From CAYFZR01 sp046760505 [NCBI: Candidatus Hydrothermarchaeota archaeon] (GTDB lineage Archaea; CAYFZR01), in the NCBI GenBank assembly GCA_046760505.1, contig JBHIEG010000004.1:23111-87110 (forward strand): a stretch of 64,000 nucleotides of DNA. The letters are read 5' to 3'. How positions within the stretch are numbered: the stretch's first letter is position 1; each line of letters begins with the position of its first letter. Of the stretch, positions 14,539 to 64,000 are shown one piece after another. The notes beneath the pieces are model-generated. The model searched no databases, was not told the origin of the DNA, and saw only the letters and a list, made by a program, of their open reading frames with translations. A program made the translations under genes and the position numbers.

Positions 14539-14877
14539 TTACAGTTTACCCATTAAAATGAACGCTACTGCCAACCCATATAATGCTACTCCTTCCGCTA
14601 GACCAACCATAACGAGACTCCAAGCAACCATCTCTCTCTTCTCTGCTATAGCGCCTAGTGCTGCTGATCCTGCTGTACCAACGCCTATTCCTGCTCCGGT
14701 GCAGGCAAGACCGGCAGATAGGCCAATTCCTATTGCTATCCCGAGGGATTTTAAACCGTCCCCAACTGCGAGCTCTTCTATTTTTTCTTCTCCTTGTGCA
14801 AGTACAGGTATTGTGCAAATCAAAAATAGTATCAAAAAGGCATTTAAAATTACAATTCCTTTTAACATCCTTTTCAT
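14539..14877 (-). CDS. atpK: A-type ATPase rotor subunit K (c), single-hairpin form
   Basis: The 112-residue protein has an N-terminal hydrophobic segment that may be a cleaved signal, then one glycine-rich hairpin: helix AIGIGLSAGLACTGAGIGVG and helix LVMVGLAEGVALYGLAVAF, with the ion-binding carboxylate in GLAEGVALYG. The TQ pair that helps form the Na+ site in two-hairpin NtpK proteins is absent. It forms the rotor ring of an A/V-type ATPase with the adjacent subunit I, encoded just upstream. No catalytic subunits are nearby. The start follows GGAGGG at 6 bases. Confidence 0.85.
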   Translation of the reverse strand: MKRMLKGIVILNAFLILFLICTIPVLAQGEEKIEELAVGDGLKSLGIAIGIGLSAGLACTGAGIGVGTAGSAALGAIAEKREMVAWSLVMVGLAEGVALYGLAVAFILMGKL

Positions 14878-14924
14878 CCAATCCCTCCTTTTTATTGCTT
14901 TTTCTTATTGGCAATCATTGCGTT

Positions 14925-16922
14925 TCATAAAGGTGCTAAGAATGTATATTTACGTATTGCCTTAAAGGCTTCGAATTTAGTTCCCCCCGCATCGTAAAAC
15001 TTGGAAAACCACTCGTAGTAATGAAGCCTTAGTGTCTGTATAAAGGACACAAAGCCCTCTATTCCGATTATGAAGATGTTTCCGATTAAGAATATTATGG
15101 ATTTCAAAAACAGCGGGGCTACCATTTCCATGAACATTACCATTATGCTACACAAAGCCGCGTGAACTAATGCAATTGCTGTAATTCTTACATACGATAT
15201 ACAGTTCGCCAAATATCTCGTTATAGCCTCGAAAGAACCATAAAAGCCCCACAAAAAAGAGGTATGCTCAGCGTACTTGGTGCCGATGCATATCACCAGC
15301 AAAGGCAAATACAGGAAGGGTATTGCTAGTGTATCTCTTAACAATAGAAATACATCTGTTCCGTGTTTTATAATCAATAATGTGCCGCCCCAAAGGAGCC
15401 AGAGACCGGAGAGGCTCCATGGAGGGAATAATGCTTCCAGATAATCTTTGTGCATGATGTGGTTTAGCATATTCAGTATTATACCCAGACTTAACTGTAC
15501 CAAGCCAATAACGATTGCAAATACAACCAGATTAGTACCGCTTTCTAAAGGTCTAAGCCAGAGAGGCTCTAATATTTCCAATCCGAATACGCTTCCGTAC
15601 AATAAACCTCCAAGCGTACCCATTATTCCACAAGCAAGCATAATCTTCCCAAATTTTTCTATAACTTCGCCGAATTTAAAATAAAAACCCAGCAAGAAAC
15701 CTAAAATTGCTATTACGAGCCCCTGTCCGACATCTCCAAACATTAGCCCATACATGAAGGGGAAACTTATTCCCATAAAGAAGGTTGGATCGATTTTGTC
15801 GTAGCCAGGGAGCCCGTATGTTTCTGTCAGGATTTCAACAGGCTTTATAGGGGGTGGATTTGATAGCATTGTAGGGGGGTTATCTCCTTTTTTTGGTTCA
15901 TCTATTCTAATGATGCCATATCCATTCGTAGTATTGTTAAAGATCTCTTTTAACTTTTCAATTAGATAATAAGGAACCCAACCGCTTATCAAGTAGCTTT
16001 TAGTAGTCTTACCGAATAGAGAGGTGATTTCATCAAGATTTTTTTCTATTTCCAACTGTTCTTTCATTAAGAGTAGTTCTTTTTCATTAACGTTTGCAAT
16101 TCTTTTTAATTCTTCTTTAAGTTTATCCTCTTCTACGGTAATATGAGATATGCTTTCTTCCAAAAAGTTCTCAGCGTCTTCCAATTCAAGATCACAAATT
16201 TTTCTTGGTATGCTAAGACTCTCAAAGCCTCTAGCGCGTAAAATTTTTCGTATTTCACTTTCATATTCATATAAACTAACAATTATGATGAATTTGGTTT
16301 TTTTATCGACATCCCCCGAGAACAAATAGAGAAAATCTTCTGTTGCTTCCTTAAGTTCTGGTTCAAGGAAATTTAATTGATCTTTAGGTACGGTTCCAGT
16401 TTCTAAGTAAAATAGTTTGAAACCCTCCAGATACTTTGGACCGATACCAAAATTTTCCAAAATGGATAAAACTTCTTGGCAAGTAAGAATATCGCTTCTC
16501 TCTTCTCTCAAAGCATCAAGTTTCGATGAAGTCTTTAAAACTTCCTTTTCTATGTTCTCAAACTTTTTTTCGAATCCTTCAAATAGTTCTAGAATAGACG
16601 TTTCTTTGATCGGTATTTTTTCGATTTCTTTTACTTCTAAGATTTTTTTTATTTTGTTGCTAAATGTTTTTTCTTCTTCAACTGACTGCAGAATATCCAA
16701 AATCCTATTTATCCTAGATAAGAGCCCTGATGTTTTATATCTTACCCAAGTAGATGGTGGAACTTCTATTCCTATCTCCTTAAGCATTTCTTGGGATTCT
16801 ATTTCCTCATGAACATTAATGAGATGAATTATTCCCAATTCTTTTAGTTCTCTCATTAGGGGATCTAACTTATCTTCAAGTACAATAGCGTGAACCTTTT
16901 TCATACGTATCGGTCTTAACAT
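14925..16922 (-). CDS. atpI: A-type ATPase stator subunit I (a), first paralogue
   Basis: A 665-residue subunit I: MLRPIRMKKV start, about 330 residues of soluble coiled-coil arm, then a membrane half with about seven helices, including PTFFMGISFPFMYGLMFGDVGQG and the C-terminal SYVRITAIALVHAAL region with the essential arginine, and RLHYYEWFSKFYDAGG at the end. It forms the ion half-channels facing subunit K. It lies 47 bases upstream of the one-hairpin atpK, forming a two-gene unit with no E, C, A, B or D genes. Confidence 0.92.
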   Translation of the reverse strand: MLRPIRMKKVHAIVLEDKLDPLMRELKELGIIHLINVHEEIESQEMLKEIGIEVPPSTWVRYKTSGLLSRINRILDILQSVEEEKTFSNKIKKILEVKEIEKIPIKETSILELFEGFEKKFENIEKEVLKTSSKLDALREERSDILTCQEVLSILENFGIGPKYLEGFKLFYLETGTVPKDQLNFLEPELKEATEDFLYLFSGDVDKKTKFIIIVSLYEYESEIRKILRARGFESLSIPRKICDLELEDAENFLEESISHITVEEDKLKEELKRIANVNEKELLLMKEQLEIEKNLDEITSLFGKTTKSYLISGWVPYYLIEKLKEIFNNTTNGYGIIRIDEPKKGDNPPTMLSNPPPIKPVEILTETYGLPGYDKIDPTFFMGISFPFMYGLMFGDVGQGLVIAILGFLLGFYFKFGEVIEKFGKIMLACGIMGTLGGLLYGSVFGLEILEPLWLRPLESGTNLVVFAIVIGLVQLSLGIILNMLNHIMHKDYLEALFPPWSLSGLWLLWGGTLLIIKHGTDVFLLLRDTLAIPFLYLPLLVICIGTKYAEHTSFLWGFYGSFEAITRYLANCISYVRITAIALVHAALCSIMVMFMEMVAPLFLKSIIFLIGNIFIIGIEGFVSFIQTLRLHYYEWFSKFYDAGGTKFEAFKAIRKYTFLAPL

Positions 16923-17035
16923 ATTTTGTACTCCTAATTACTACAAATAGAGGTTATAAATGGATTATTAGACATTATATAATTTTTTTGGTTTTAATAG
17001 GAAACTCTAAATAGGAAGAGAAGAACTTTCTATCC

Positions 17036-17614: not shown

Positions 17615-17686
17615 GATAACGGTGTAAAGCAGAATAAGGTCTGATATCATTAGTTATTTAACGGGAAAGTTAGTGTAAAGGCGAAT

Positions 17687-19264
17687 ATGATGAAGGTACT
17701 CGTACCAGATACAAGCGTCATAATTGATGGAAGATTCAACATTTTTCTAAAACAAATAAAGGATAAATGCAAGATCGTTATTCCTGAGGCAGTCATATCA
17801 GAGCTTGAAAATCAAGCCAATAAGGGTAGAGAGATAGGTTTTAAGGGGTTAGATGAGGTAATAGCCTTAAAAAAGTTAGCAGAAGAGATGGGATTGGAAT
17901 TAGTATTTCATGGTGCCAGACCCACGCCAGAACAAATAAAATACTCTCGCACCGGAGAGATCGATGAAATAATTAGATACGTCGCATTAGATGTTGGAGG
18001 AACCTTGGTTACAGGGGACAATGTCCAAGCAAAAGTTGCACAGATAAAAGGAATTGATGTTGAATTGCTCCCTCCTCTGGAAGAGAAAAGGGAAAACATC
18101 CTTGAAAGAATGTTTGAAGAGAATATAATGTCCATTCATCTAAAAGAGAACGTTATACCTGTGGCAAAGAAAGGCAGGCCAGGAAATATAAGAATCATAA
18201 AACTTCGTGAAACACCATGCACGCTGGAACAGCTTGAATATCTCGCTAAAGACATCCTGAGAGAAGCTAAGGCAAGAAGAGACGGTTTTATTGAAATAGA
18301 AAGAAGAGGAGCCACTGTAATCCAACTTGGACCATACAGAATATCGATTTGCAGGCCGCCATTCAGCGATGGGTTCGAGATAACAGCGGTAAGACCCATA
18401 GCAAAGGTAAGTTTGGAGGACTATTCTTTGTCGGACAAACTGATGAACAGACTAGAAAAGAGAGCTGAGGGAATACTCATTGCAGGACCTCCTGGTGCTG
18501 GAAAATCTACCTTTGCTCAAGCACTGGCGGAATTTTACAGTAAAAGAGAGAAGATAGTTAAGACGATGGAAAGCCCCAGAGATCTTCAGGTCACGGAGGA
18601 AATAACTCAATACTCTCCTCTGGAAGGGAGCATGGAGAAAACTGCGGATATATTGTTGTTGGTAAGACCAGATTACACGATATACGATGAACTTAGAAAA
18701 ACAAGCGATTTCCAAGTATTCGCTGACATGAGACTTGCTGGCGTAGGCATGATTGGGGTTGTGCATTCCACAGAGGCTATAGATGCAATTCAGAGGTTAA
18801 TTGGAAGAGTGGAGATGGGAATGATACCCCAAGTGGTAGACACAATTATATTCATAAAAGATGGGTGGATCAAGAAGGTTTACGAAATCAATTTCACCGT
18901 GAGAGTACCCACCGGCATGGTAGAAGCAGACTTGGCAAGACCGCTGGTAGAGGTCAGAGACTTCGACTCTGGAAAGGTGGAATACGAGATCTATACTTAC
19001 GGAGAAGAAGTCATAGTTATGCCCCTCACCGGAGAGATTGATACTGAATCTAAAAGAGACAGGGCAATAGAGAAGATCACGAGAGAGTTGGAAAGATATG
19101 TGGAAGATATAAGAAAAATAGACATGATATCCGATAGAGAAGCAATAGTCTACATCGATAAAAGAAGTATACCAAGGCTCCTTGGAAGGAAGGGAAAAAG
19201 AATTTTAAGAATAGAAAAAAGATTAGGAATAAGGATAGATATAAGACCAATAGAGGATTATTAG
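17687..19264 (+). CDS. PIN-domain ATPase with KH domain (PINA-like)
   Basis: Residues 1-125 are a PIN nuclease domain (VPDTSVIIDGR with Asp8; acidic residues near Glu39 and Asp111). A VirB11/PilT-like ATPase follows, with Walker A GPPGAGKST at 267-275 and a histidine-containing VVHSTEAIDAIQRLIGR region. The C-terminus is a KH RNA-binding domain (RLLGRKGKRILRIEKRLGI). Archaeal homologues such as PINA of Sulfolobus are hexameric ATPases connected with nucleic-acid processing and Holliday-junction work. The order and length (525 aa) match the family. Confidence 0.9.
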   Translation: MMKVLVPDTSVIIDGRFNIFLKQIKDKCKIVIPEAVISELENQANKGREIGFKGLDEVIALKKLAEEMGLELVFHGARPTPEQIKYSRTGEIDEIIRYVALDVGGTLVTGDNVQAKVAQIKGIDVELLPPLEEKRENILERMFEENIMSIHLKENVIPVAKKGRPGNIRIIKLRETPCTLEQLEYLAKDILREAKARRDGFIEIERRGATVIQLGPYRISICRPPFSDGFEITAVRPIAKVSLEDYSLSDKLMNRLEKRAEGILIAGPPGAGKSTFAQALAEFYSKREKIVKTMESPRDLQVTEEITQYSPLEGSMEKTADILLLVRPDYTIYDELRKTSDFQVFADMRLAGVGMIGVVHSTEAIDAIQRLIGRVEMGMIPQVVDTIIFIKDGWIKKVYEINFTVRVPTGMVEADLARPLVEVRDFDSGKVEYEIYTYGEEVIVMPLTGEIDTESKRDRAIEKITRELERYVEDIRKIDMISDREAIVYIDKRSIPRLLGRKGKRILRIEKRLGIRIDIRPIEDY

Positions 19265-52646: not shown

Positions 52647-52838
52647 TTATTCTTTACTAAACTCTCTTATCACGGCATAGATATTTGTAAAAAAACCTGC
52701 AAAAAAGCCACAAATGAAACCGATTGTTGACCAGGTTGTACCGAATTTTTTTCCGATGAGGTACCCAATAAATCCAAATAAGATGCTAGATAAAGCCAAT
52801 TTTACCCCAAAAGTCATGGCTTGGATAGTTTTTCTCAT
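52647..52838 (-). CDS. AtpZ-like two-helix membrane protein, 63 aa
   Basis: Two helices (about 12-32 and 36-56) with the FIGYLIGKKFGTTWSTIGFICGFFAGF pattern of the AtpZ/AtpI small membrane proteins that accompany F- and N-type ATPases, where they help assemble or insert the c ring. It lies at the end of the second A-ATPase gene group, and a paralogue is at 60363-60572. The assignment is by pattern only. Confidence 0.6.
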   Translation of the reverse strand: MRKTIQAMTFGVKLALSSILFGFIGYLIGKKFGTTWSTIGFICGFFAGFFTNIYAVIREFSKE

Positions 52839-52886: not shown

Positions 52887-53219
52887 TTACATCGTTTCGA
52901 TGTATAAAATTTCTATCATGAGTGATGTGAATGAAATAAAGAGGATGAGGCAGTATATTTTACCAATCGTGCTCTTTACTATCACTTTGTGCATAACAAG
53001 CACCACGCCCAATGAGGAAAGCGCGAGCCAGAGGGATATTCCGAAAGTGATGTAAAGTAGATTTACTTTTGCTAGGAGCAGCAACCCATAGAAGAACCCA
53101 ACCAAAATTAATTGTAAACTGAGGGTGGAAACTAAAAAAATATCATTTGCATGCTCTACTCGTGCCAAAATTTGTCTTTTTCTAAGTCGTTTCAAGAGCC
53201 AGATATTTGTCGATTTCAT
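52887..53219 (-). CDS. Four-helix membrane protein in an A-ATPase group
   Basis: A 110-residue protein: basic N-terminus, then about three to four helices (starting ANDIFLVSTLSLQLILVGFF). Unrecognised. It overlaps the 3' end of the adjacent atpC by 38 bases and precedes the AtpZ-like gene, an arrangement reminiscent of the atpZ/atpI (or atpQ/atpR) pair of bacterial ATP synthase operons. Confidence 0.55.
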   Translation of the reverse strand: MKSTNIWLLKRLRKRQILARVEHANDIFLVSTLSLQLILVGFFYGLLLLAKVNLLYITFGISLWLALSSLGVVLVMHKVIVKSTIGKIYCLILFISFTSLMIEILYIETM

Positions 53220-54342
53220 CCGGGCTCAAGCCCTCCTGTATTCCCGTTAGTATACTGCGGACACAATCAATCTCAATCTCTTTTATTAGTAAGAAGGCGA
53301 TTATTGGACCGGCTCCAAATGATCTTTTCAGTGAGATATCCCGCACTCTACTAATCAAAATTTTTTGTAGGTATTTCTCAATTCCAACGTAGTCTTTATC
53401 TCTCTCAAATTCCTTAATGGCTTGTGTTATGAACTCCCCATAGGGAGTAGCAGTTAATAGATTTAATATATCCTCTATCTTATCCAGCTGGACAAGGCTG
53501 TTCATGGTTTCTGGATCGATTTCAAATCCTGGGTAAATTAAATTCTCTTTTATGGTTTCTGGTGGTACCTGATCCACTTTTAATCTGATGATAAGTCTTA
53601 TATTGGTAATATCTATAATGGTCCCGATTAGAGTGAGAAGATCTTCTCTGTCCTCCCCCTTAATGTCTTCTATGAGTCGATGGCATTTCGAGAAATAATA
53701 TCTAAATAAAAGAGTTGTTAGTGGCGATATCGAGCCGGTTTCTCTCCAGTCTCGAACACCTTCTGTAATCAGTGCAGCGTACTCTGTTTCGTCTAACTTG
53801 GGCAAAATTTCACCTAACTCTTGAGTCTCGTACATTGATTTTACTAGATCAAAATCGATTGTTCCTATTCTGATTAGATCGACTGGCATTTCAATGATTC
53901 TTTCCTTTGAATATGCCTCTAATAGGACTCTTTTAATGTTTCTGATATCCCATCTTGCTCTAACAAATGAATCAAAAAAGCCCCTTAGGTGCTGAGGAAT
54001 AACAAGGTCAATTTCCTCCTGAGTATGTGCCAGATATAACCTCAGACCCACTTCGTATCCGTTTTCCAGACTCAGGTAGGTGGGATAGTCCAAACCTTCG
54101 AGGCTGGATATGAACACTGGAACGTTATCAGCCTCTGTTAATTCCTTGATTTTGGAGGAAGAAAGGAGTTTGCCTTCCATTGTTCTTATACCTGAAACGG
54201 GATAGAAATAAGGTATTTTTCTGTACAGCCATTGTACTGTCGGGGCTATTAGAATTGCAATTAGCATGAAACCTAGGAAAATAACAATTATCAGAGCTGC
54301 CTCGAATCCCACTAGTTCTACCAGATAATCAAACAACCCCAA
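53182..54342 (-). CDS. atpC: A-type ATPase subunit C, membrane-anchored form
   Basis: A 386-residue subunit C (d), which couples the central stalk to the K ring. The alpha-helical core repeats are visible (FDSFVRARWDIRNIKRVL; LLTLIGTIIDITNIRLIIRLK, the DxxNIR motifs). An N-terminal transmembrane helix (about 12-35) is present. It is 10 bases downstream of atpK and two genes below atpI. Confidence 0.88.
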   Translation of the reverse strand: MGLFDYLVELVGFEAALIIVIFLGFMLIAILIAPTVQWLYRKIPYFYPVSGIRTMEGKLLSSSKIKELTEADNVPVFISSLEGLDYPTYLSLENGYEVGLRLYLAHTQEEIDLVIPQHLRGFFDSFVRARWDIRNIKRVLLEAYSKERIIEMPVDLIRIGTIDFDLVKSMYETQELGEILPKLDETEYAALITEGVRDWRETGSISPLTTLLFRYYFSKCHRLIEDIKGEDREDLLTLIGTIIDITNIRLIIRLKVDQVPPETIKENLIYPGFEIDPETMNSLVQLDKIEDILNLLTATPYGEFITQAIKEFERDKDYVGIEKYLQKILISRVRDISLKRSFGAGPIIAFLLIKEIEIDCVRSILTGIQEGLSPDEIDKYLALETT

Positions 54343-54352
54343 TCAGATGCAC

Positions 54353-54829
54353 CTATCCGAGTAGACCGGAGTTCAGTAAGATCATGACAGCCATGACAAA
54401 TCCCAGTATAGCGAAGAATTCTGCCATTATTCCAAATACCATGGATTTTCCGAATACTTCTTCATTCTTCGCAGTGGCGCTTATGCCCCCTGCACAGGTT
54501 ATTCCCTGCCCTATTGCTGTTAGACCTGCTACTCCCATGCATAAACCCGCAGCAATAGCAGCGAGGCTTACTGGACTTGTAATCTCCTTTCCTGAAAGAA
54601 GGGCGCCAGAAAGAATGAATATACCTACCAAAAATCCGTAGATCCCCTGAGTTTGAGGTAATTGCTGTAGTATTAGGGATTTACTGAACTTCTTCGGATC
54701 TTGCGCAGTAACTCCAGCTGCAGAGGCTCCAGCAATACCGACACCCAGTGCTGCCCCGAATCCCGCAATTCCAACTGATAGTCCAATACCTATGGTTGCG
54801 AGAGCAGCAGTTTGCGTCAATTCAACCAT
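54353..54829 (-). CDS. atpK: A-type ATPase rotor subunit K, two-hairpin form
   Basis: A protein of about 158 residues with two hairpins. Hairpin 1 ends QLPQTQGIYGF (Gln where the carboxylate would be), hairpin 2 has LTAIGQGIT and GIMAEFFAILGF with the single ion-binding Glu. Thr-Gln, Gln and Glu correspond to T64, Q65, Q110 and E139 of the Enterococcus hirae NtpK Na+ site, so Na+ coupling is likely. ATG 54829 follows GGAGGTG; a GTG at 54835 is in frame. It overlaps atpI by 8 bases. Confidence 0.9.
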   Translation of the reverse strand: MVELTQTAALATIGIGLSVGIAGFGAALGVGIAGASAAGVTAQDPKKFSKSLILQQLPQTQGIYGFLVGIFILSGALLSGKEITSPVSLAAIAAGLCMGVAGLTAIGQGITCAGGISATAKNEEVFGKSMVFGIMAEFFAILGFVMAVMILLNSGLLG

Positions 54830-56945
54830 AGTCACACCTCCTTAATTTTGTATATTTTCTTACAGCGCGGAAGGGAATGTACTTATCTCCTCCACCTTCA
54901 TAGAACTTTCCAAATAATTCTGCATAGTGTAATCTCAATGAATGGATGAATCCACCGAGAGAATTTAATCCGAAACTTGTCAAGTGTCCTATGAACAATA
55001 TCAAAAATACCAAGAAAAGTGCAAGTAAACCAAAAGGAGATTTCATTCCATTGCTTATTATACCAAAGATGCTTGTGTATCCACCTATCTCTGCCAATCC
55101 CATGGTGGTTGCCAAGATATAAGCAGTTACATTTACAGCTAGAGCCAAGCCACCCGTTGCCATTGCAAGCGCCAGAATTCTTGAATAAGAGATCAGATCG
55201 CCAAGAAGTCCGGTACAATCGAAAAAGCCTAGTGGACCTCCGCGTACTATTACTAATGCAGAGCCAACCAAGAGCAAGTAGAGTCCATATTTGAAGGCTT
55301 TTTCAGTGATAGCTTTAACTCCAAACAACTTGAATAACACAAGTATTAGGCCTATTTCGAGTGTCAATAATCCAACTTGACCTATAGCTTCTCTCAAGTT
55401 TTTATTCTCTAACGCATTCTTGAAAGAAATGAGAATCCCTATATCCATATGAACGGCTCCCAAAAGTACTGAAACTACTAATACTAGCAAAACCGGACTT
55501 ATTGGATGGCCTAAAAACAGTAATGACTCGGTAGCAAAGGGATCTACCCATATAGGCTTTGTTTCAAAGTTTAGGAAACGTTCTGAAAAATCTCCAAGGT
55601 AACTGCCTGTTAGAATACCGAAGAATATTGCTGAGAGTCCGCCTATTATAAGGATACTAGAAACGTCGTTTATACTCTCGTTGATTTTTCCATGACCCTT
55701 TTTCACGAGCAGGGCAAAAATTACGGCCATCAACCCGTAAATAGCATCTGTTAGCATAAAACCAAAGAATACTGTGAAGAAAACTGCTATTATCAAGGTT
55801 GGATCGAGTTCTCCCTTCTTTGGTAGTCCAAACATTCCGGTCAGCATCTCGTAAGGCTTTATAAGCTTGGGATTCTCAAGCAGAACCGGAGGCTCTTCTT
55901 CAGAGGAACTTTGGGCTTCCTCTACCAATACACATCCATCGGTAATTTCCTCGGATAGTTTCTTTACCCTATCAAGATTTCTCTTTGGACACCATGCCTC
56001 AAGGATAACAGCGTTTTTTGTCTCAAGAAGGAAAGGGGTTATTCCTTCTCTCTCAGCCTCTATGACAGAGATTTCATGGTTTAATAGCATGTTCCACTCA
56101 TTTTCTTTGACAATTTCGTATGCCGATTCAATTATCCTCTTTTCTTCGGCCTCTAGTTCATCAAGGGCTCTTTCTATTTTCTCTACAGACTCTGAAGGCG
56201 TACCTTCAACTTCTGGCAATTCAATAGACTCAAACTTAACTTTCAACAAAAAATCGTTTACCACTTCCATAAACTCATTGGTTGTTATTACAACCACTAG
56301 TGATCTTCCGTCTATCTCTTCGGCGTGGAAAAATAAGCATTCATTTGTTAAAGATCTTAAAATTTCTAATTCTTTCACTTTCTCCAGAGATATAGTACCG
56401 ATCCAGATTTTGCAAAACTTGTAATTTTCTTCCTTTAAATACTCAACATTTACATCTAAAGGTTCCAGCAATTTTAGTGTATTTAAATAATCCCTAAACC
56501 TGTCTTTTTCAGAATCGATTTCGTTCAGTCTTGTCTCAAAAACACTTACCTCATTCTCGATTTCCGATATGCTGGTCTCTAGACGGTTAATCAGCTCATC
56601 TACTTCAAGTTTGTCTATCTCTTCCCCTTCTATAACTCCTGGAAACAAAGCCGAGTAAATGTTGTTCAGCGCTGCTCGAACTTTTGATTTTAAATTTCCT
56701 TTTTTTGTTTCAGAACCTTTTATATCTTTTATTACATCGAAAAATGTGAGTATACGCCTGAACCTCATTGAGAAGTGCAGAAAAATACGCTCTTCACCCT
56801 TTGATTCTTCAGCAAATTCTGATAATTCTTTGCTGGTTTCTTTAACTTGGAGAAGCCCTTCTTCGTGCAGCGCTCTGATGAGGGGGGCAGCAAAGTATTT
56901 ATGCGTAACTATTACTACCTTTTTCATCTCTGCAGGCCGCATCAT
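54822..56945 (-). CDS. atpI: A-type ATPase stator subunit I, second paralogue
   Basis: A 707-residue subunit I: MMRPAEMKKVVIVTHKYF, a soluble arm of about 370 residues, then about eight helices with DPTLIIAVFFTVFFGFMLTDAIYG, the DLISYSRILALAMATGGLALAVN helix carrying the essential arginine, and SLRLHYAELFGKFYEGGG. It is much closer in motifs to the paralogue at 60998 than to that at 14925. Order on the strand: wHTH, AbrB-like, I, K, C, membrane protein, AtpZ-like. Confidence 0.93.
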   Translation of the reverse strand: MMRPAEMKKVVIVTHKYFAAPLIRALHEEGLLQVKETSKELSEFAEESKGEERIFLHFSMRFRRILTFFDVIKDIKGSETKKGNLKSKVRAALNNIYSALFPGVIEGEEIDKLEVDELINRLETSISEIENEVSVFETRLNEIDSEKDRFRDYLNTLKLLEPLDVNVEYLKEENYKFCKIWIGTISLEKVKELEILRSLTNECLFFHAEEIDGRSLVVVITTNEFMEVVNDFLLKVKFESIELPEVEGTPSESVEKIERALDELEAEEKRIIESAYEIVKENEWNMLLNHEISVIEAEREGITPFLLETKNAVILEAWCPKRNLDRVKKLSEEITDGCVLVEEAQSSSEEEPPVLLENPKLIKPYEMLTGMFGLPKKGELDPTLIIAVFFTVFFGFMLTDAIYGLMAVIFALLVKKGHGKINESINDVSSILIIGGLSAIFFGILTGSYLGDFSERFLNFETKPIWVDPFATESLLFLGHPISPVLLVLVVSVLLGAVHMDIGILISFKNALENKNLREAIGQVGLLTLEIGLILVLFKLFGVKAITEKAFKYGLYLLLVGSALVIVRGGPLGFFDCTGLLGDLISYSRILALAMATGGLALAVNVTAYILATTMGLAEIGGYTSIFGIISNGMKSPFGLLALFLVFLILFIGHLTSFGLNSLGGFIHSLRLHYAELFGKFYEGGGDKYIPFRAVRKYTKLRRCDYG

Positions 56946-56961
56946 CTAAGTACACCATGGA

Positions 56962-57378
56962 CTAAAGTGCCTTCAACTCGACCTTGAACACATTTTCAAC
57001 CTGCCTTATGTCATCGGCTAATTTTTCAAGGTTTGCTTTATCAGGTCCGGAGAGAAATCCTTCCCAAATACAAGCTTCTTTTGCATAGCAAAATCCAGTT
57101 GTATGTATGATCTTCACTTTTGCATCTGCCAGCTTCAATTCTAACTTGTGAGTGGTGTCGTAGATATCCTTTGCAACGATCCTCAATTTGTACAGTTCTT
57201 TATCGATCTTCATTAATCTAACTTGCTTCCTCTCTGGAATTAATATGGTAGCCACTGCATCTCCATCCTTTAGATTTAAGGCTTCCAGAATATTTTTAGG
57301 GATTTCGATTTTTCCATCTTTAATTTCACACCTCTCTCCTACGGATATCTCCGGAAACTCTTCAACTTTCTTTTCCAT
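56962..57378 (-). CDS. AbrB-like DNA-binding plus ACT-like domain protein
   Basis: Residues 14-55 resemble an AbrB/SpoVT swapped-hairpin domain (EIKDGKIEIPKNILEALNLKDGDAV). The C-terminal part (about 65-138) has a beta-alpha-beta look (LELKLADAKVKIIHTTGFCY; NLEKLADDIRQVENVFKVELKAL) suggesting an ACT-like sensor domain with two cysteines. It overlaps the upstream winged-helix gene by 40 bases and is 16 bases ahead of atpI, so it probably regulates this ATPase group or another set. Confidence 0.6.
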   Translation of the reverse strand: MEKKVEEFPEISVGERCEIKDGKIEIPKNILEALNLKDGDAVATILIPERKQVRLMKIDKELYKLRIVAKDIYDTTHKLELKLADAKVKIIHTTGFCYAKEACIWEGFLSGPDKANLEKLADDIRQVENVFKVELKAL

Positions 57379-57791
57379 ACTTCCACCTCTAAACTTTTAA
57401 TCAGGTCCAAATAATCTTCTCCAGCTTTTGAAAGAACTATCTTATCGTTTTGTCTCTCGACAAGACCCAAAACCTCCAACATTTTAGATCTTCTTTCTAT
57501 AAGACCCCTAGGCAGGCCTGTTAGAGTTTCTATTTGCTCTATATCATGAACTCCTGTTCCCGCGGTTTTAAGTATTAATGTCCCTGCTTCACCGAGTCTT
57601 ATTTCAGTTTTTCTTAGTAAATTCTCAATGCGCTTAAACTGGAGTGGCAGGAGGAGCCAATAACCCACAATTGATGCGATTGTTGCTATAATTACTGAGG
57701 CCCATATCAATACGTTTAGACCAAAATAAGATATGAGCAATACTATCACGAAGATGCCAATACTTCCCATTGATGCGATGTTGACTCTCAT
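57339..57791 (-). CDS. Membrane-anchored winged-helix protein in an A-ATPase group
   Basis: Two N-terminal helices (about 8-48) are followed by a winged-helix domain of about 85 residues (LGEAGTLILK, IEQIETLTGLPRGLIERRSKMLEVLGLVERQNDKIVLSKAGEDYL). The same domain, with obvious similarity (LGEMGRLI, IEGIESTTGLPRHRIEERLRVLRLMGLV), is fused to the C-terminus of the subunit C paralogue at 58009. It leads the second ATPase group and may bind DNA at the membrane or act as a protein-protein module. Confidence 0.65.
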   Translation of the reverse strand: MRVNIASMGSIGIFVIVLLISYFGLNVLIWASVIIATIASIVGYWLLLPLQFKRIENLLRKTEIRLGEAGTLILKTAGTGVHDIEQIETLTGLPRGLIERRSKMLEVLGLVERQNDKIVLSKAGEDYLDLIKSLEVEVWKRKLKSFRRYP

Positions 57792-58008: not shown

Positions 58009-59478
58009 TTATTCTTCTTCCACCCTCTTTATTAGTTTTACAATACTCTCTCCTTTTCTGGTTAATTTTAGTCCTTTTTCCGTTTCTGCAACCAAACCCA
58101 TCAATCTGAGCACTCTCAGTCTTTCTTCTATTCTATGTCTCGGTAATCCGGTGGTGGACTCTATTCCTTCAATGTCTTTAGCCCCATAGTGGATTGACAT
58201 TGTTATAAGGCGACCCATCTCGCCTAGGTCAATATCAAGCCTGGTTCTAATTGCTTCCGGCTCAAACAATTCTATTACTGGAACTGCCACTCCATATTCA
58301 ATGAGTTTTTGAGTTTGTTCAGAGTCATATCCCTCTTCCTTGCATTTAAGAACTGTTCTAATATCATTAATTTCATTCTCCCTTTGAAGTAGATAGTTTA
58401 CGAGCGGTGAAATAGAAAAAGGCTGCCTTAAGGAGAGTGCCAACTCAGTCTCCAACAAGAATTCATCAAGTTTTCTTTCAAAAGGAATTATTGACCCGAT
58501 TTCTTCGTATTCGGGCAATAGTTCACTTATTATTCTACCGTAAGGAGTTCCCTCGAGACCGCTTATGACCTCTTCTACGTTATATGCCTCTGCTAGGCTC
58601 AAGAGAACCTCAGGCATTATGTTATAGCCAATCGGTATGAGCAGACTTTTTATGTCTTCCGGAGAAACGTTCTCTGACTTCAGTCTTAGCAGATTCTTTA
58701 TATTTTCTATGTCAATCCATGTTCCGAGGAATACCTTGAACATCTTTAGCTCATCTGTTAAACCTGATGCAACCAGCGACCAAACTTTAAAGTAGTAATA
58801 CCTGTCTAGAGCACTTTCCAGGACCAAAAGAGATTTTTTCTCTTCATAATCCGGTAAAACTTCCTTGAGAACATTCGCATACTCCGTACCCTCGAGTTTT
58901 GAGATGAATTCTTCCATACTCCTAGAATCAGCAAGGGTTTCCAACTCAGTTAGGTCAAGATCGCCAATGGGTATCATCGTATTGATATCTGGCATTACAT
59001 TTGCATGGATCGCCCTGATTATCTTTTTTAGGTTTTTTATTTCCCATCTCTTCGTCCATGCAGCAACAATCCTTTTGGCATCTTCTGGAGAGTAATGTAA
59101 AATCTTCTCGTATACATCCTTCAAACAGCGGTTAAACATAATTTCAGCATCGAATAATCCCTTGCTTTCCGCTAAAACTTCTTCTGTATATTTCCCATAT
59201 TCTGTATCGCCCAGGTTTACCATAGCTTCAATCAAAGAATCAGATTCTAAAAGTTGATTGAATTTAGGTTTGCCGATGTATTTTGCTTCCATTGCCCGAA
59301 TTTTTGCGTTAAGCAAAGAATATGGTGCAATATCTGTCACGAACCTAATAATGGGTATAATGATGATTATAAAACACAGAATCGCCAAAAGAAGAACTAG
59401 AAAGAAGAAAATTTGAGGATGGTCTGAAAATCCAAAAACTTCTGCAATGGCTAGGTAATCTTCGATACCGCCTACCAT
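58009..59478 (-). CDS. atpC: A-type ATPase subunit C fused to a C-terminal winged-helix domain
   Basis: A 489-residue protein. It has an N-terminal transmembrane helix (about 23-46), the subunit C core with ILHYSPEDAKRIVAAWTKRWEIKNLKKIIRAIHANV and WIDIENIKNLLRLK motifs, and after about residue 405 a winged-helix domain of about 80 residues. Ordinary C subunits stop before this domain. It lies 32 bases downstream of the three-hairpin atpK. The function of the extra domain is unknown. Confidence 0.85.
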   Translation of the reverse strand: MVGGIEDYLAIAEVFGFSDHPQIFFFLVLLLAILCFIIIIIPIIRFVTDIAPYSLLNAKIRAMEAKYIGKPKFNQLLESDSLIEAMVNLGDTEYGKYTEEVLAESKGLFDAEIMFNRCLKDVYEKILHYSPEDAKRIVAAWTKRWEIKNLKKIIRAIHANVMPDINTMIPIGDLDLTELETLADSRSMEEFISKLEGTEYANVLKEVLPDYEEKKSLLVLESALDRYYYFKVWSLVASGLTDELKMFKVFLGTWIDIENIKNLLRLKSENVSPEDIKSLLIPIGYNIMPEVLLSLAEAYNVEEVISGLEGTPYGRIISELLPEYEEIGSIIPFERKLDEFLLETELALSLRQPFSISPLVNYLLQRENEINDIRTVLKCKEEGYDSEQTQKLIEYGVAVPVIELFEPEAIRTRLDIDLGEMGRLITMSIHYGAKDIEGIESTTGLPRHRIEERLRVLRLMGLVAETEKGLKLTRKGESIVKLIKRVEEE

Positions 59479-59510
59479 AACTTTACACCGCTTGTACCTT
59501 TGAGTGGAAT

Positions 59511-60239
59511 TTAACCAAACAGCCCAGTGCCGTACATTATTAGCAAAGCAATCAACAGGCCAAATATCGCGAAAGTTTCAGACATAACTGCCAATACAAT
59601 GCTTTTTCCCATTGTAGCGGGCTCTTTTGCAGCCGCTCCTATTCCACTTGCCGCAGTTATTCCCTGTCCTATTCCCGATAGTCCTGCTAGCCCTACAGAA
59701 GCACCTGCTCCAATTGTTGCGAGTCCTACCATGGGTGAGAGTGCTTTACCCATCGTACCTATGATACCAGCGAAAACAAGCAATAGTATAGCCGTGAGTA
59801 ACCCATAGATTGCCTGGGTCTCAGGCAATACGGAGAATACCATTCCCTTACCGAATACCTCTGGATTCTCTGATGTTGCCCCTATTCCACTTGCCGCTGC
59901 TATTCCTTGTCCTATGGCAGATAAACCTGCCATACCAACTCCTATTCCTGCTCCAAGAGATGCCATAGCCATAAGAGCGGAAAAACCCTCTCTTGGAGCC
60001 TTCGTTATTAGTCCAGTCCCTAGAAGTATTAATATCGCTGTCAATAATCCATAAATGGCTTGAGTTTGTGGCAGCGCTGAGAATACGATTGTTACGCCAA
60101 ATTTCTCTGGGCTCTCCGATATCACGGTGGCTCCTGCAGCCCCAGTTATACCTACACCAATTCCAGATCCTACCGCTGCAATTCCCATTGCAAGACCTGC
60201 TCCAACTGCTGCAAGAGCGAGATTAACATCCAATGGCAT
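59511..60239 (-). CDS. atpK: A-type ATPase rotor subunit K, three-hairpin form
   Basis: A 242-residue triplicated K. Hairpin 1 ends LPQTQAIYG (Gln at the carboxylate position), hairpin 2 LPETQAIYG and hairpin 3 MSETFAIFG (Glu in both), so three hairpins carry two carboxylates, as in the triplicated proteolipid of Methanocaldococcus. GQG motifs in the first helices complete the Na+-type ligand set. It has 79 identical bases with the four-hairpin paralogue at 63058. Encoded just ahead of the winged-helix-fused atpC. Confidence 0.92.
   Translation of the reverse strand: MPLDVNLALAAVGAGLAMGIAAVGSGIGVGITGAAGATVISESPEKFGVTIVFSALPQTQAIYGLLTAILILLGTGLITKAPREGFSALMAMASLGAGIGVGMAGLSAIGQGIAAASGIGATSENPEVFGKGMVFSVLPETQAIYGLLTAILLLVFAGIIGTMGKALSPMVGLATIGAGASVGLAGLSGIGQGITAASGIGAAAKEPATMGKSIVLAVMSETFAIFGLLIALLIMYGTGLFG
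59777..59855. repeat. 79-base perfect inverted repeat with 63442-63520 (atpK paralogues), left arm
   Basis: The minus strand here reads TTCGGTAAGGGAATGGTATT... to ...ACTATTGCTTG and equals the plus strand at 63442-63520 base for base. It lies in hairpin 2 of the three-hairpin atpK. Confidence 0.9.
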
Positions 60240-60362
60240 ATTTTCATTCCCCCGTTACGGCAGATGTTGTTACAAACAGTTCACAAAATTTATATTATTA
60301 AAGATTTCGGAGTAAAATTAAAGATTGTAGTAAAAAAATTAGAACATAATGTTGTAAAAAAA

Positions 60363-60572
60363 TTAAATATCCAATGAGAGAATCCTTTTGATCCCTATGA
60401 AGAATCCAAACAACAATCCTATAGTTAGACCTAAAACAGTTTGAATTTCACCGAACTTTCTCCCGATAAAATATCCCAAAAATGTGCAAATTACAATGGT
60501 GAATGCTAATTCCGTTCCGATTGTTATTCCCCTTATCCAAGTTATGGTTTTTTTGTCTGGTCTAGAGGCCAC
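60363..60572 (-). CDS. AtpZ-like two-helix membrane protein, 69 aa
   Basis: Two helices (about 15-35 and 44-62) with FLGYFIGRKFGEIQTVLGLTIGLLFGFFIG, parallel to the 63-residue protein at 52647. It starts with GTG 60572, 4 bases after GGGAT. It lies upstream of the three-hairpin atpK on the same strand (123-base gap) and is divergent from atpH. A small assembly factor for the rotor ring is a fair guess. Confidence 0.6.
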   Translation of the reverse strand: MASRPDKKTITWIRGITIGTELAFTIVICTFLGYFIGRKFGEIQTVLGLTIGLLFGFFIGIKRILSLDI

Positions 60573-60661
60573 TTTTATCCCGCTCTATAACTCTTTTATG
60601 GGCGATAAAATATAAATACCCATTCAATAAATTACAACGTAGAAGAGACGGGGGCTTAACA

Positions 60662-60976
60662 GTGGTTGTAGAGGCATTGATGACCATAAAAAAAGTCGAA
60701 AATGAGTGTCTAAAGAAAATAGAAGACGCAGAAAAGGAAGCAGAAAGAATGATTGAAAATGCTGAGATAGAAGCTTCTGACATGCTCAAAAAGGCTGAAG
60801 AAGAGGCAAAAGATCATGTAAGGAAATTAATCGAAAAAGCGAGAGAGGAAGCAGAGGAAGAAGCCTCAAAAATACTCAAAGAGGGTGAAAAAGAGTCAGA
60901 AGAATTAAAAAAAAGAGCTATTAGAAAACTCGATGAGGCCGTTGATGCAATAATAAAGCCAGTTCTTGGACTTTGA
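60662..60976 (+). CDS. atpH: A-type ATPase peripheral stalk subunit H
   Basis: A 104-residue protein that is almost entirely a right-handed-type coiled coil of Glu, Lys and Ala (KKIEDAEKEAERMIENAEIEASDMLKKAEEEA pattern) with a short IIKPVLGL tail. It pairs with subunit E in the peripheral stalk. The H-I-K order here is the start of a canonical A-ATPase operon. GTG 60662 is the annotated start; ATG 60680 is possible. Confidence 0.88.
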   Translation: MVVEALMTIKKVENECLKKIEDAEKEAERMIENAEIEASDMLKKAEEEAKDHVRKLIEKAREEAEEEASKILKEGEKESEELKKRAIRKLDEAVDAIIKPVLGL

Positions 60977-60997
60977 ATATTGTTCAGAGGGAAATCT

Positions 60998-63046
60998 ATG
61001 TTTAGACCAGCGAGAATGCAAAAATTAAAAGTAGTTACTTTAGACGTGTACAAACACGATCTTGTAAGGAACCTTCATGAACTGGGAACTGTCCAACTCT
61101 ATGATCTTTCTGATAAAGTTTCGGCACCTGATTTGGCAAAGATCGTTAGAAAAGATGAACCCTCGGAAATCGGCCGCAAGGTTTCCCCCCTTCTCATGAG
61201 GATCGGAAGGGTTTTATCTATTTTTGAGTCTGCCAAACCAGAACAAAAAATAAATCCTATAAAAGCATTTTTTGCTCCTAATGAGCCCAAAAAAATAAAA
61301 ATTAAAAAGAGGGAGCCTGAGGAATTAATTGAAGAAACAAACAAAATATTGAATGATATCGAGCCGTTAGTTCAAGAACTTGAGAGAAACTTGAATTCTT
61401 TAGAAGAGAGAGGAGAACAGATTGATGCTCTTCTCAAAGTGATGGACGAGTTAAAACACATAGATGTGAATTTAGAGTTACTCTATGATGGTCCTTATGT
61501 ATCTATCTTATGTGGGTCGTTGCCCGCTGGCAAGGACTTAACCAACGTAATACTCGCCGAAGCAAACGGTGAAGCAATAACGAAAACAAAAATAATCGAC
61601 GAAGAGCATGCTATACTGGTGGTTGCCGTTTCTAAGGAGTATCTCGAAAATGTTAGTGAAGTTTTGAGAAGAGCGGGATTTGAGGCGTTTGAATTACCTT
61701 CTGGTCTAAGAGGCCATCCTTCCAAGGTAACTTCAGATTTAAAGGAAGAATTGATTGAAATAAACTCAAAAAAAGATAAAATCCTTTCCGAGATAAGAGA
61801 ACTGTCTGATAATTGGGAGGATAAATTGCTGGCAATTCAAGAAGAACTTACGATAGAGAAGGAGAGAGGAGAAGTAAGTATGAACTTCTTGAAGACTGAA
61901 AATGCCTTTATGTTGGAAGCATGGGTTACTGCAAAGAACTCTCCGGAAACTGTGAGGAAAATAGAGCATATAACGGATGGACATTGTGTAATCGAAATTT
62001 CAAATCCGATTAATGAGCCTGTAGAGGAGATTCCCGTACTCTTTGATAATCCAAAGATATTCAGGCCTTTTGAACTCTTAACCGAAACTTTTTCACCTCC
62101 AAGATACGATGAAATCGATCCTACGATAATATTTGCGATTGCATTTCTAATCTTTTATGGCTTGATGCTTTCTGATGCTTTTTACGGTATCATAATAGGA
62201 TTGATAGGTTTTGGACTTTTCAGAGGGGCTGGAAAATACAATATGGGAGTAAGAAAGTTCAGCGTAATACTAATGTCCGCAGGAGCCAGCACGGTGGTTA
62301 TAGGAGCCTTGTTGGGAGGTTGGCTGGGAGATCTACCAACAAGGTTGCATGAGGCGGGAATAATCCCTTTTAAGATACCCGCGATATGGTTTGAACCTCT
62401 TGGAAAAGAAAATATAAGTTTTCTTGGAACGGTTCAGAGCCCCCTAGTTGTTTTTCTTTTAACGGCATTGATATTCGGGCTTATCCACATAAATATTGGA
62501 GTTCTAATAGGTCTCTACCTCTCCGTAAAAAGGAAGCGATATATGGAGGCGGTAAGCGAACATTTGTGGTTATGGTTTTTCCAACCGGGCATGTACGTGC
62601 TGGTGACCTCCACGTTGTTTGGTTTGGAGTTTAGCCCTTTCATAAAGAAAATTGCAGTCCTAATAACAATAGTATCTCTGTTGATGCTTTTGGTTAGACC
62701 AGAATTCCCTTACATAGATCCAATGGGCTTTTTTGATATTACGGGTTATATAGGTGACTTTTTATCCTATGCAAGGTTACTTGCATTAGGATTGGCCACT
62801 GGAGGAATTGCTATGACGGTAAACATGCTTGCCGGAATGGTAAAAGCAACTCCTTATATTGGATTGATATTAATGGTAATAGTATTCATCGTGGGTCACA
62901 CATTTAACATGGCGATGAACGGACTTGGAGCCTTTGTTCATTCGCTTAGGTTACACTACGTAGAATTCTTCGGAAAATTTTATGAGGGCGGCGGCAAAAG
63001 ATTCACGCCCTTTAAAGTAAATCGAGAGGTTACAGTAGTGGAATAG
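60998..63046 (+). CDS. atpI: A-type ATPase stator subunit I, third paralogue
   Basis: A 682-residue subunit I: MFRPARMQKLKVVTLDVYKHDLV start, a soluble arm of about 370 residues, then about eight helices (DPTIIFAIAFLIFYGLMLSDAFYG; GDFLSYARLLALGLATGGIAMTVN with the essential arginine; HSLRLHYVEFFGKFYEGGG). ATG 60998 has AGAGGG upstream; a TTG at 60980 is in frame. It lies between atpH and the four-hairpin atpK in what looks like the main ATP synthase operon. Confidence 0.94.
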   Translation: MFRPARMQKLKVVTLDVYKHDLVRNLHELGTVQLYDLSDKVSAPDLAKIVRKDEPSEIGRKVSPLLMRIGRVLSIFESAKPEQKINPIKAFFAPNEPKKIKIKKREPEELIEETNKILNDIEPLVQELERNLNSLEERGEQIDALLKVMDELKHIDVNLELLYDGPYVSILCGSLPAGKDLTNVILAEANGEAITKTKIIDEEHAILVVAVSKEYLENVSEVLRRAGFEAFELPSGLRGHPSKVTSDLKEELIEINSKKDKILSEIRELSDNWEDKLLAIQEELTIEKERGEVSMNFLKTENAFMLEAWVTAKNSPETVRKIEHITDGHCVIEISNPINEPVEEIPVLFDNPKIFRPFELLTETFSPPRYDEIDPTIIFAIAFLIFYGLMLSDAFYGIIIGLIGFGLFRGAGKYNMGVRKFSVILMSAGASTVVIGALLGGWLGDLPTRLHEAGIIPFKIPAIWFEPLGKENISFLGTVQSPLVVFLLTALIFGLIHINIGVLIGLYLSVKRKRYMEAVSEHLWLWFFQPGMYVLVTSTLFGLEFSPFIKKIAVLITIVSLLMLLVRPEFPYIDPMGFFDITGYIGDFLSYARLLALGLATGGIAMTVNMLAGMVKATPYIGLILMVIVFIVGHTFNMAMNGLGAFVHSLRLHYVEFFGKFYEGGGKRFTPFKVNREVTVVE

Positions 63047-63057
63047 GAGGAGTTGAT

Positions 63058-64000
63058 ATGCCAATGAACCCAAATGTTGCCCTTGCAGCTGTAGGAGCAG
63101 GTCTTGCAATGGGACTCTCTGGTATTGGATCTGGAATTGGTGTAGGTATAACTGGGGCTGCTGGAACCGGTGTAATAGCTGAGGATCCCGGTAAATTTGG
63201 CACGGCTATTGTATTTCAGGCACTGCCACAAACTCAAGCCATTTATGGATTATTGACAGCGATATTAATACTTCTCGGAACCGGTTTACTGGCGGGAGCG
63301 CCAAAAACAGATTTCAATTTATTAATGGGTCTTGCCTCTTTGGGAGCAGGAATAGGAGTTGGTATGGCAGGTTTGTCTGCCATAGGACAGGGGATAGCAG
63401 CGGCAAGTGGAGTTGGAATTACAGCAGAGGCGCCGGAGATGTTCGGTAAGGGAATGGTATTCTCCGTATTGCCTGAGACCCAGGCAATCTATGGGTTACT
63501 CACGGCTATACTATTGCTTGCCTCTACCGGCGTCCTCGCCGGCGCAGGAAAAGTAGCACCTTACGAAGATTTTTACTTCCTTGCGGGCCTAGCTGGTGTA
63601 GGCGCAGGAGTTGCAGTAGGTTTAGCAGGCTTATCTGCCATAGGACAGGGGATAGCGGCCTCAGCAGGCATTGGAGCCTCCAGAGAAGTACCTGAAATAT
63701 TCGGTAAGGGAATGGTATTCTCCGTATTGCCTGAGACCCAAGCAATCTATGGGTTGCTGATTGCCATACTGCTACTAGTATTTTCAGGACTTTTAGGAAC
63801 GATTAAAGAGATTTCTCCCTTGGTTGGAGTTGCTTTAATCGGAGCAGGTGCTTCTGTAGGATTAGCGGGACTATCGGGAATAGGACAGGGAATAACTGCT
63901 GCCGGAGGAATCGGTGCGGCTGCAAAAGAGCCCGCTACAATGGGTAAAAGTCTAGTCCTCTCGGTAATGTCCGAGACGTTCGCGATATTTGGCCTGTTAA
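63058..64000 (+). CDS. atpK: A-type ATPase rotor subunit K, at least four hairpins (runs off the window)
   Basis: The 314 visible codons have no stop. ATG 63058 follows GGAGG. Four hairpins are seen, with outer-helix motifs LPQTQAIYG, LPETQAIYG, LPETQAIYG and MSETFAIFG, so three carboxylates in four hairpins. The last motif matches the final hairpin of the three-hairpin paralogue, so the gene probably ends about a dozen codons beyond the window. Hairpins 2 and 3 share 41 identical bases, evidence of recent internal duplication. Confidence 0.93.
   Translation, partial: MPMNPNVALAAVGAGLAMGLSGIGSGIGVGITGAAGTGVIAEDPGKFGTAIVFQALPQTQAIYGLLTAILILLGTGLLAGAPKTDFNLLMGLASLGAGIGVGMAGLSAIGQGIAAASGVGITAEAPEMFGKGMVFSVLPETQAIYGLLTAILLLASTGVLAGAGKVAPYEDFYFLAGLAGVGAGVAVGLAGLSAIGQGIAASAGIGASREVPEIFGKGMVFSVLPETQAIYGLLIAILLLVFSGLLGTIKEISPLVGVALIGAGASVGLAGLSGIGQGITAAGGIGAAAKEPATMGKSLVLSVMSETFAIFGLL
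63442..63520. repeat. 79-base perfect inverted repeat with 59777-59855, right arm
   Basis: This stretch of hairpin 2 in the four-hairpin atpK is identical to the reverse complement of 59777-59855. Similarity continues upstream (GGAGCAGGAATAGGAGTTGG and the following helix) with only a few changes. It indicates gene conversion or recent duplication between the two oppositely oriented genes. Confidence 0.9.

What the first reader, a model, noticed from the sequence alone, without database searches (positions are those of the whole stretch)
14539..64000. Four A-ATPase rotor genes with one, two, three and at least four hairpins, three I subunits and two C subunits
Seen: K at 14539 (1 hairpin, 1 Glu), 54353 (2 hairpins, 1 Glu), 59511 (3 hairpins, 2 Glu) and 63058 (at least 4 hairpins, 3 Glu); I at 14925, 54822 and 60998; C at 53182 and 58009. 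Only the last group starts with atpH like a standard operon, and no catalytic genes accompany the others. Established: archaeal K genes vary in hairpin number between species, and the carboxylate count per ring sets the ion/ATP ratio. A single genome holding a graded series is unusual. Inference: alternative membrane sectors could swap under one catalytic head, giving different ion stoichiometry, or specialised ion channels.
Basis: partly seen in the sequence, partly recalled or inferred. Interest (0 to 1): 0.78.

Follow-up and report, generated by a model that had tools for sequence, protein, structure and literature searches.

The report
Spare rotor sets for archaeal ATPase
One archaeal DNA stretch carries four differently sized versions of the spinning ring of its ATP-making machine, together with spare membrane parts but no spare engine heads nearby, as if the cell could change the gear ratio between ions and ATP; whether it really does so is untested.

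Summary
The window has four ring-subunit (K) genes with 1, 2, 3 and 4 hairpins, three full-length stator (I) genes and two C genes. No catalytic, shaft or E-stalk gene was found among 68 window proteins scanned with Pfam; only atpH.

Three points are sharper than in the finding. (1) The series is not 1-2-3-4. K2, K3 and K4 are one Na+-type family built as cap, then 0, 1 or 2 middle units, then end hairpin. Each has hairpins minus one complete Na+ sites (1, 2, 3), all inside the chain. K1 is a different, Thermus-like, predicted H+-type subunit. (2) K3-C3 and I2-K2-C2 lie in one 10-gene directon that also holds two AtpI-like genes. It is divergent from the standard atpH-I4-K4 start, 89-107 bp apart. 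(3) C2 and C3 carry an N-terminal hydrophobic helix; C3 also has a winged-helix-like tail shared with a neighbouring membrane protein.

Best reading: alternative membrane modules for one catalytic head. This is unproven. No genome of this archaeon or a close relative could be reached, and archaea with two or three complete A-ATPases are known. Filed as a new variant of a known kind.

The parts
14539..14877 (-). K1: single-hairpin ring subunit, 112 aa, N-terminal signal-like helix, one Glu (E95); lacks the Gln/Thr/Gln Na+ ligands; predicted H+-type
   Evidence: PF00137 6.8e-15; best solved relative Thermus V/A-ATPase K; ligand table
14925..16922 (-). I1: stator/half-channel subunit, 665 aa, both conserved Arg present
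   Evidence: PF01496; aligns 19-660 with E. hirae NtpI; motifs
52647..52838 (-). AtpI-like (ATPase_gene1) small 2-TM protein, end of the minus-strand directon
   Evidence: PF09527 2.6e-7, above cut-off; TM
52887..53219 (-). unknown small membrane protein (3 hydrophobic helices), overlaps end of C2
   Evidence: no family; TM
53182..54342 (-). C2: socket subunit (AC39) with N-terminal hydrophobic helix, 386 aa
   Evidence: PF01992 1.4e-61; TM 15-33
54353..54835 (-). K2: two-hairpin Na+-type ring subunit, Q61/E139, one complete site
   Evidence: PF00137 x2; aligned to E. hirae NtpK ligands
54822..56945 (-). I2: stator/half-channel subunit, 707 aa, both Arg present; overlaps K2 by 14 nt
56962..57378 (-). 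138-aa protein with a weak MazE/AbrB-like N-terminus, same directon
   Evidence: PF04014 E 0.029 only, below cut-off
57339..57791 (-). 150-aa protein: two hydrophobic helices plus a winged-helix-like domain, paralogous to the C3 tail
   Evidence: BLASTP 37% over 98 aa, E 2e-14; AF2 pLDDT 74.4; MarR-like matches, E 0.0014 at best
58009..59478 (-). C3: socket subunit (AC39) with N-terminal hydrophobic helix and C-terminal winged-helix-like extension, 489 aa
   Evidence: PF01992 9.7e-81 over 56-390
59511..60239 (-). K3: three-hairpin Na+-type ring subunit (cap-mid-end), two complete sites
   Evidence: PF00137 x3, PRK06271 1e-84 above cut-off
60363..60572 (-). AtpI-like (ATPase_gene1), first gene of the minus-strand directon
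   Evidence: PF09527 2.3e-8, above cut-off
60573..60661 (.). divergent intergenic region (89 bp; 107 bp if atpH starts at the ATG at 60680) between the accessory directon and the standard operon
60662..60976 (+). atpH: first gene of the standard A-ATPase operon
   Evidence: TIGR02926 AhaH 3e-15, above cut-off
60980..63046 (+). I4: stator/half-channel subunit of the standard operon (start at 60980 or 60998)
63058..64000 (+). K4: four-hairpin Na+-type ring subunit (cap-mid-mid-end), three complete sites; runs off the window
   Evidence: PF00137 x4

Best explanation
The locus holds alternative membrane parts for one A-type ATP synthase. The standard operon (atpH-I4-K4-, continuing beyond the window) makes the main enzyme. 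The divergent directon makes two exchangeable sets: K3-C3, an alternative ring with its socket that could run against I4 because K3 is 81-90% identical to K4 in the three shared hairpins; and I2-K2-C2, a complete second membrane sector. Two AtpI-like proteins would help build the rings. K2, K3 and K4 differ by whole middle hairpins, each adding one complete Na+ site, so rings of equal hairpin number would carry 1/2, 2/3 or 3/4 site per hairpin and move different numbers of Na+ per ATP. More sites per turn would let ATP be made at a weaker ion gradient, fewer would save ions. I1-K1 is a separate, predicted H+-type pair. Shown here: gene identity, hairpin architecture, complete ligand sets, conserved arginines, gene order, purifying selection between K3 and K4. 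Inferred: sharing of one catalytic head, ring sizes, switching, the role of the AtpI-like proteins, and the purpose.
For: I2 and K2 overlap by 14 nt and C2 follows 10 nt after K2, a complete membrane sector; the directon is 10 genes with all gaps under 50 nt except 123 and 217, divergent from atpH. No A/B/D/E/F gene above cut-off among 68 window proteins. The ligand set L61/T64/Q65/Q110/E139 of E. hirae NtpK is complete once in K2, twice in K3, three times in K4 (ligand definition PMC2359735, passages). K3 equals K4 minus one middle hairpin: h1 81%, h2 87%, end 90% identical; dS 0.51 and 0.69 against dN 0.16 and 0.07, so both are kept under selection. 3 of 3 I keep the SYxR and LRLHY arginines, matching NtpI. 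An AtpI factor is needed for the mixed ring of Acetobacterium woodii (PMC8904574, passages).
Against: No genome held, so catalytic gene number is unknown, and the window ends inside K4. Some archaea carry two or three complete A-ATPases (PMC11738941). I2 and I4 are only 26% identical in the middle cytoplasmic region (I2 120-350) against 39% in the membrane part, so there is no sign of special conservation where shared stalks would bind. K3-C3 lacks its own I and I1-K1 lacks a C. I saw no report of gear switching in a prokaryotic ATPase in the listings of 9 answered paper searches, which is no support for it.
Confidence: 0.45

Rival explanations
1. Two or three complete A-ATPases exist in the genome, with the catalytic genes of the other groups encoded elsewhere (split clusters). 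Each works with its own ion and ring.
For: About 3% of archaeal genera have two or more complete A-ATPases; seven genera combine two of different predicted ion; eight Methanomicrobiales genera mostly have two H+ and one Na+ type (PMC11738941, parts 1-2 of 3 read). K1/I1 is predicted H+-type beside Na+-type K2-K4.
Against: Subunits of one ATPase are expected to be co-located (an assumption stated in PMC11738941). Here three groups in one window lack every catalytic and shaft gene. K2, K3 and K4 all have the same predicted ion, and K3/K4 are close paralogues.
Confidence: 0.32
2. Mixed rings: K2, K3 and K4 join in one ring, as c, c' and c'' do in eukaryotic V-ATPases (recalled) and c1 with c2/3 in Acetobacterium woodii.
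For: A mixed ring of two kinds of subunit (9:1 c2/3:c1) exists in A. woodii, with AtpI needed (PMC8904574, passages). K3 and K4 are similar enough to pack together and AtpI-like genes flank the accessory set.
Against: Each accessory ring gene comes with its own C and K2 with its own I, which a mixed ring would not need. K2 hairpins are only 40-52% identical to those of K3/K4.
Confidence: 0.12
3. The accessory sets work without a catalytic head, as Na+ or H+ channels, or are relics of lost ATPases.
For: No head genes nearby; I1-K1 has neither C nor head.
Against: C is the socket for a rotating shaft and would be pointless in a bare channel. I proteins keep the cytoplasmic arm (I1 aligns 19-660 with NtpI). 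Frames are open and K3/K4 show dN well below dS.
Confidence: 0.08
4. Assembly artefact: groups from different organisms joined in one contig.
For: The sequence is probably from metagenomic data (inference: no genome held). K3/K4 share DNA stretches 79-82% identical.
Against: Uniform tetranucleotide profile and GC3; tight operon-like spacing; K3 and K4 too different for a collapsed or duplicated repeat.
Confidence: 0.03

Closest known systems
A1AO ATP synthase of Na+-using methanogens (Methanocaldococcus type, three-hairpin K)
   Same: multi-hairpin K (M. jannaschii three hairpins, PMC2359735 passages); atpH-I-K start (order recalled); a PF09527 gene in the M. jannaschii genome
   Different: most archaeal genomes have a single A-ATPase (PMC11738941); here K2, K3 and K4 occur together with spare I and C
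Enterococcus hirae Na+ V-ATPase (NtpK 2bl2, NtpI 8wci)
   Same: best solved relatives of K2, K4, I1, I2 and I4; all Na+ ligands conserved in K2-K4
   Different: one ring type, one full operon (recalled)
Acetobacterium woodii hybrid-rotor Na+ F-ATPase
   Same: two kinds of ring subunit, AtpI needed for assembly (PMC8904574 passages); that they differ in hairpin number is recalled
   Different: F-type; both kinds sit in one ring; no extra stator or socket genes (recalled)
Eukaryotic V-ATPase a and d isoforms (e.g. yeast Vph1/Stv1)
   Same: alternative stator or socket subunits used under one catalytic head (recalled; PDB lists vacuolar and Golgi isoforms of a)
   Different: not linked to ring size (recalled); a eukaryotic organelle system
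Methanomicrobiales genomes with three A-ATPases
   Same: several A-ATPases of different predicted ion type in one archaeon (PMC11738941)
   Different: counted there as sets with all core subunits

Membership tests
A-type (A/V) ATPase membrane sector | K (PF00137), I (PF01496) and C (PF01992) families | tested here: met
   4 of 4 K, 3 of 3 I, 2 of 2 C above cut-off
A-type (A/V) ATPase membrane sector | conserved arginines in the last helices of I | tested here: met
   SYxR and LRLHY in 3 of 3 I proteins
Complete A1AO ATP synthase | catalytic A and B and shaft D, F with each group | tested here: not met
   none among 68 window proteins; the standard operon may continue past 64000
Na+-type K subunit | complete ligand set of NtpK (L61, T64, Q65, Q110, E139) | tested here: met
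   met in K2, K3 and K4, not in K1; the Leu61 ligand is a backbone carbonyl
Hybrid (mixed) rotor | different ring subunits in one ring | not testable with these tools
   needs purified rings
N-type (N-ATPase) | F-type subunits in the N-ATPase gene order | tested here: not met
   ring, stator and socket genes are A-type K/I/C
Swappable gear system | one catalytic head for several membrane sectors | not testable with these tools
   no genome held

The most novel reading that the evidence does not exclude
A rotary ATP synthase with interchangeable gears: a single catalytic head in an archaeon is fitted with Na+ rings of 2-, 3- or 4-hairpin subunits (and an H+ set), changing the ions spent per ATP with the energy supply. 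The switch may be tied to winged-helix-like domains, one of them fused to a rotor socket subunit.
Probability: 0.28. Interest if true: 0.88.

Novelty: new variant of a known kind. Interest (0 to 1): 0.6.

Why it matters
The number of ions per ATP is normally taken as fixed by ring size in each species (recalled). A genome that carries rings with 1, 2 and 3 Na+ sites per subunit, plus spare stators and sockets, would make it possible to test whether cells can change this ratio. That is of special interest for archaea that live near the energy limit. The K2-K3-K4 set also suggests how multi-hairpin ring subunits grow: by inserting a middle hairpin that brings its own complete ion site.

Tried and rejected
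Own genome: not held. Close relatives: the one genome-contig scan, with I2, gave only two Clostridia I genes at 27-28% identity. Four scans of viral contigs (K3, I alignment, C3, K alignment) gave no relative. Plasmids by protein (I4): 11 records, all bacterial, identity 22-30%. A search of 61 genomes (G001, the genome of the Clostridia locus L001, and 60 unnamed relatives) for methanogenesis marker 11 gave 1 weak match below cut-off, in G001 itself, so no methanogen-like genome was reached.

One graded series 1-2-3-4: rejected, K1 differs in closest relative and predicted ion. Chimeric contig: not supported by composition. Decayed relics: not supported (open frames; dN far below dS for K3/K4). 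Extra conservation of the I arm where a shared stalk would bind, as support for a shared head: looked for and not found. Structure models: C3 with two sequences reached pLDDT 57.9 only, and its matches to V-ATPase d and Thermus C have TM-scores of 0.25-0.45 and rmsd of 14-17 A, so it was used just for the overall layout. The 150-aa protein reached 74.4, no match at E <= 0.001, mostly winged-helix regulators among the 50 rows shown, E 0.0014-0.0097. PDB sequence searches with C3 and the 150-aa protein gave no convincing hit; for C3 the best were armadillo-repeat proteins, with V-ATPase d at E 0.012. Papers: the ANME papers PMC9012536 and PMC9539880 (passages) mention ATP synthase only in passing; PMC10656485 (passages) and PMC7793690 (passages) report no such case in what I saw. 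Search listings showed no paper on swappable membrane sectors in archaea; these are word searches of an open-access library, so absence is weak evidence.
Full report
What was checked. The window is 64 kb, 38.2% GC. It looks like a methane- or alkane-metabolising archaeon: methanogenesis marker 11 at 28153-29091 above its cut-off, an Aks-like cluster at 22411-26255 with a TPP enzyme next to it and an XcbA-like protein below cut-off, a multihaem cytochrome at 4568-5893, and a CbiM/CbiQ pair. The lineage is inference only; no genome is held for it.

The genes. K at 14539, 54353, 59511 and 63058 has 1, 2, 3 and 4 PF00137 stretches. I at 14925, 54822 and 60980/60998 gives full-length proteins of 665, 707 and 682-688 aa. 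C at 53182 and 58009 matches PF01992 at 1.4e-61 and 9.7e-81. atpH passes the AhaH cut-off. Among 68 window proteins scanned with Pfam, none matches catalytic A/B or D, E, F families above cut-off (E limits between 1e-5 and 0.01). The 68 are all 62 ORFs of at least 100 aa kept (two of them antisense frames) plus K1, K4 and four short genes. atpH itself has weak, below-cut-off coiled-coil matches that include subunit E models.

Architecture of the rings. Splitting the K proteins into hairpins shows three kinds. The cap (first) hairpin has Gln in place of the ion-binding Glu and Val at the helix-A Gln position (3 of 3). The middle hairpin has all ligands (3 of 3). The end hairpin has Glu and the helix-A Gln, but Phe where the next site would need Gln (3 of 3; in K2 also Phe for Thr). 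K2 is cap-end, K3 cap-middle-end, K4 cap-middle-middle-end. Hairpin identities K3 to K4 are 81% (cap), 87% (first middle) and 90% (end); K4's extra middle hairpin is 75-76% identical to the other middle ones. The ten-hairpin tree groups the end hairpins of K3 and K4 (96/94, the only starred branch of 7), with K2's second hairpin next to them (88/87) and cap hairpins apart (93/93); these last two fall short of the tool's mark. Against Enterococcus NtpK, whose Na+ ligands are Leu61 (backbone), Thr64, Gln65, Gln110 and Glu139 (PMC2359735, passages), complete sites form only between successive hairpins of one chain: one in K2, two in K3, three in K4. The joint from one subunit's end to the next subunit's cap has no site. 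A chain of h hairpins therefore has h-1 sites. K1 is most like Thermus K among solved structures, lacks Gln, Thr and Gln, and is predicted H+-type by the rule used in PMC11738941.

Arithmetic, not measurement. Sites per hairpin are 1/2, 2/3 and 3/4 for K2, K3, K4. For a 24-hairpin ring this would be 4.0, 5.3 and 6.0 Na+ per ATP; for 12 hairpins 2.0, 2.7 and 3.0. Known rings differ in size: the PDB lists give 10 two-hairpin chains per entry for NtpK and 12 one-hairpin chains per entry for Thermus K (chains divided by entries), so the true sizes here are unknown.

Stators and sockets. 3 of 3 I proteins have SYxR and LRLHY, aligned with the matching segments of E. hirae NtpI. C2 and C3 begin with a strongly hydrophobic helix. 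C3 carries about 90-100 extra residues at its C-terminus; 98 aa there are 37% identical (E 2e-14) to the neighbouring two-helix membrane protein at 57339-57791. A low-confidence model of C3 (pLDDT 57.9) matches V-ATPase subunit d (E down to 2.3e-5) and Thermus C (E 0.002) in the core, but with TM-scores of 0.25-0.45 and rmsd of 14-17 A, and winged-helix DNA-binding domains such as CggR in the tail at E 0.12 or worse. The model of the neighbour is better (74.4) and matches MarR-like and other winged-helix proteins at E 0.0014 or worse. Pfam hits for the tail (TrmB 0.003, HTH_45 0.0064) are below cut-off. The winged-helix label is therefore likely, not proven.

Arrangement. Ten minus-strand genes from 60572 to 52647 run gene1-K3-C3-winged helix-138 aa-I2-K2-C2-110 aa-gene1, with gaps of 123, 32, 217, -40, 16, -14, 10, -38 and 48 nt. 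They diverge from atpH-I4-K4 over an 89-107 bp region. The two gene1 proteins belong to ATPase_gene1 (PF09527), a family that the control search finds in 4 of 14 named genomes, Methanocaldococcus jannaschii among them. That AtpI is needed for ring assembly comes from A. woodii (PMC8904574, passages); that PF09527 covers AtpI-like proteins is recalled. The I1-K1 pair lies about 36 kb away, without C.

Age and selection. K3 and K4 differ at dS 0.51 and 0.69 with dN 0.16 and 0.07 in the two alignable parts: both are kept functional. K2 hairpins are 40-52% identical to those of K3/K4, I2-I4 34% and C2-C3 29%, so the I2-K2-C2 set probably parted before the K3/K4 split (inference).

How it most likely works. 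I2-K2-C2 has everything a membrane sector needs, and K3-C3 is a ring with its socket. With no head genes beside them, the simplest use is under the head of the divergent standard operon, giving Na+ motors of different ratio (confidence 0.45). The main rival is further complete ATPases whose catalytic genes lie elsewhere (0.32), since two or three complete A-ATPases occur in some archaea (PMC11738941, parts 1-2 of 3 read). Mixed rings (0.12), head-less use or relics (0.08) and an assembly artefact (0.03) are less likely. One test went against the favoured reading: the middle cytoplasmic region of I2 and I4, part of the arm that would meet shared stalks, is less conserved (26%) than the membrane part (39%).

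Limits. The genome, reads and relatives could not be reached. The only genome-contig scan returned two Clostridia.

Noticed in passing
58009-59478 and 57339-57791: A C (socket) subunit with a C-terminal winged-helix-like extension, next to a two-helix membrane protein carrying a paralogous domain (37% over 98 aa). A possible link of the ATPase to regulation.
   Followed up: partly
14246-14385: Two tandem copies of a 70-bp unit (82% alike) downstream of K1, in the gap between K1 and the convergent CopD-like gene at 13562-14131.
   Followed up: no
20906-26255: Aks-like gene run (homocitrate-synthase-like, aconitase-like large and small subunits, homoisocitrate-dehydrogenase-like) with an acetolactate-synthase-like TPP enzyme; perhaps a coenzyme B precursor cluster with its own decarboxylase. 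Subfamily but not equivalog cut-offs are reached for the three main enzymes.
   Followed up: no
26256-29091: XcbA-like protein (below that cut-off; Pfam DUF7714), a radical SAM protein and methanogenesis marker 11 in a row.
   Followed up: no
51417-52286: Thioredoxin domain with a weak V4R-like C-terminal match (E 0.0003, below cut-off) in one protein, close to the accessory ATPase directon.
   Followed up: no
17687-19264: PIN domain fused to a T2SSE-type ATPase.
   Followed up: no
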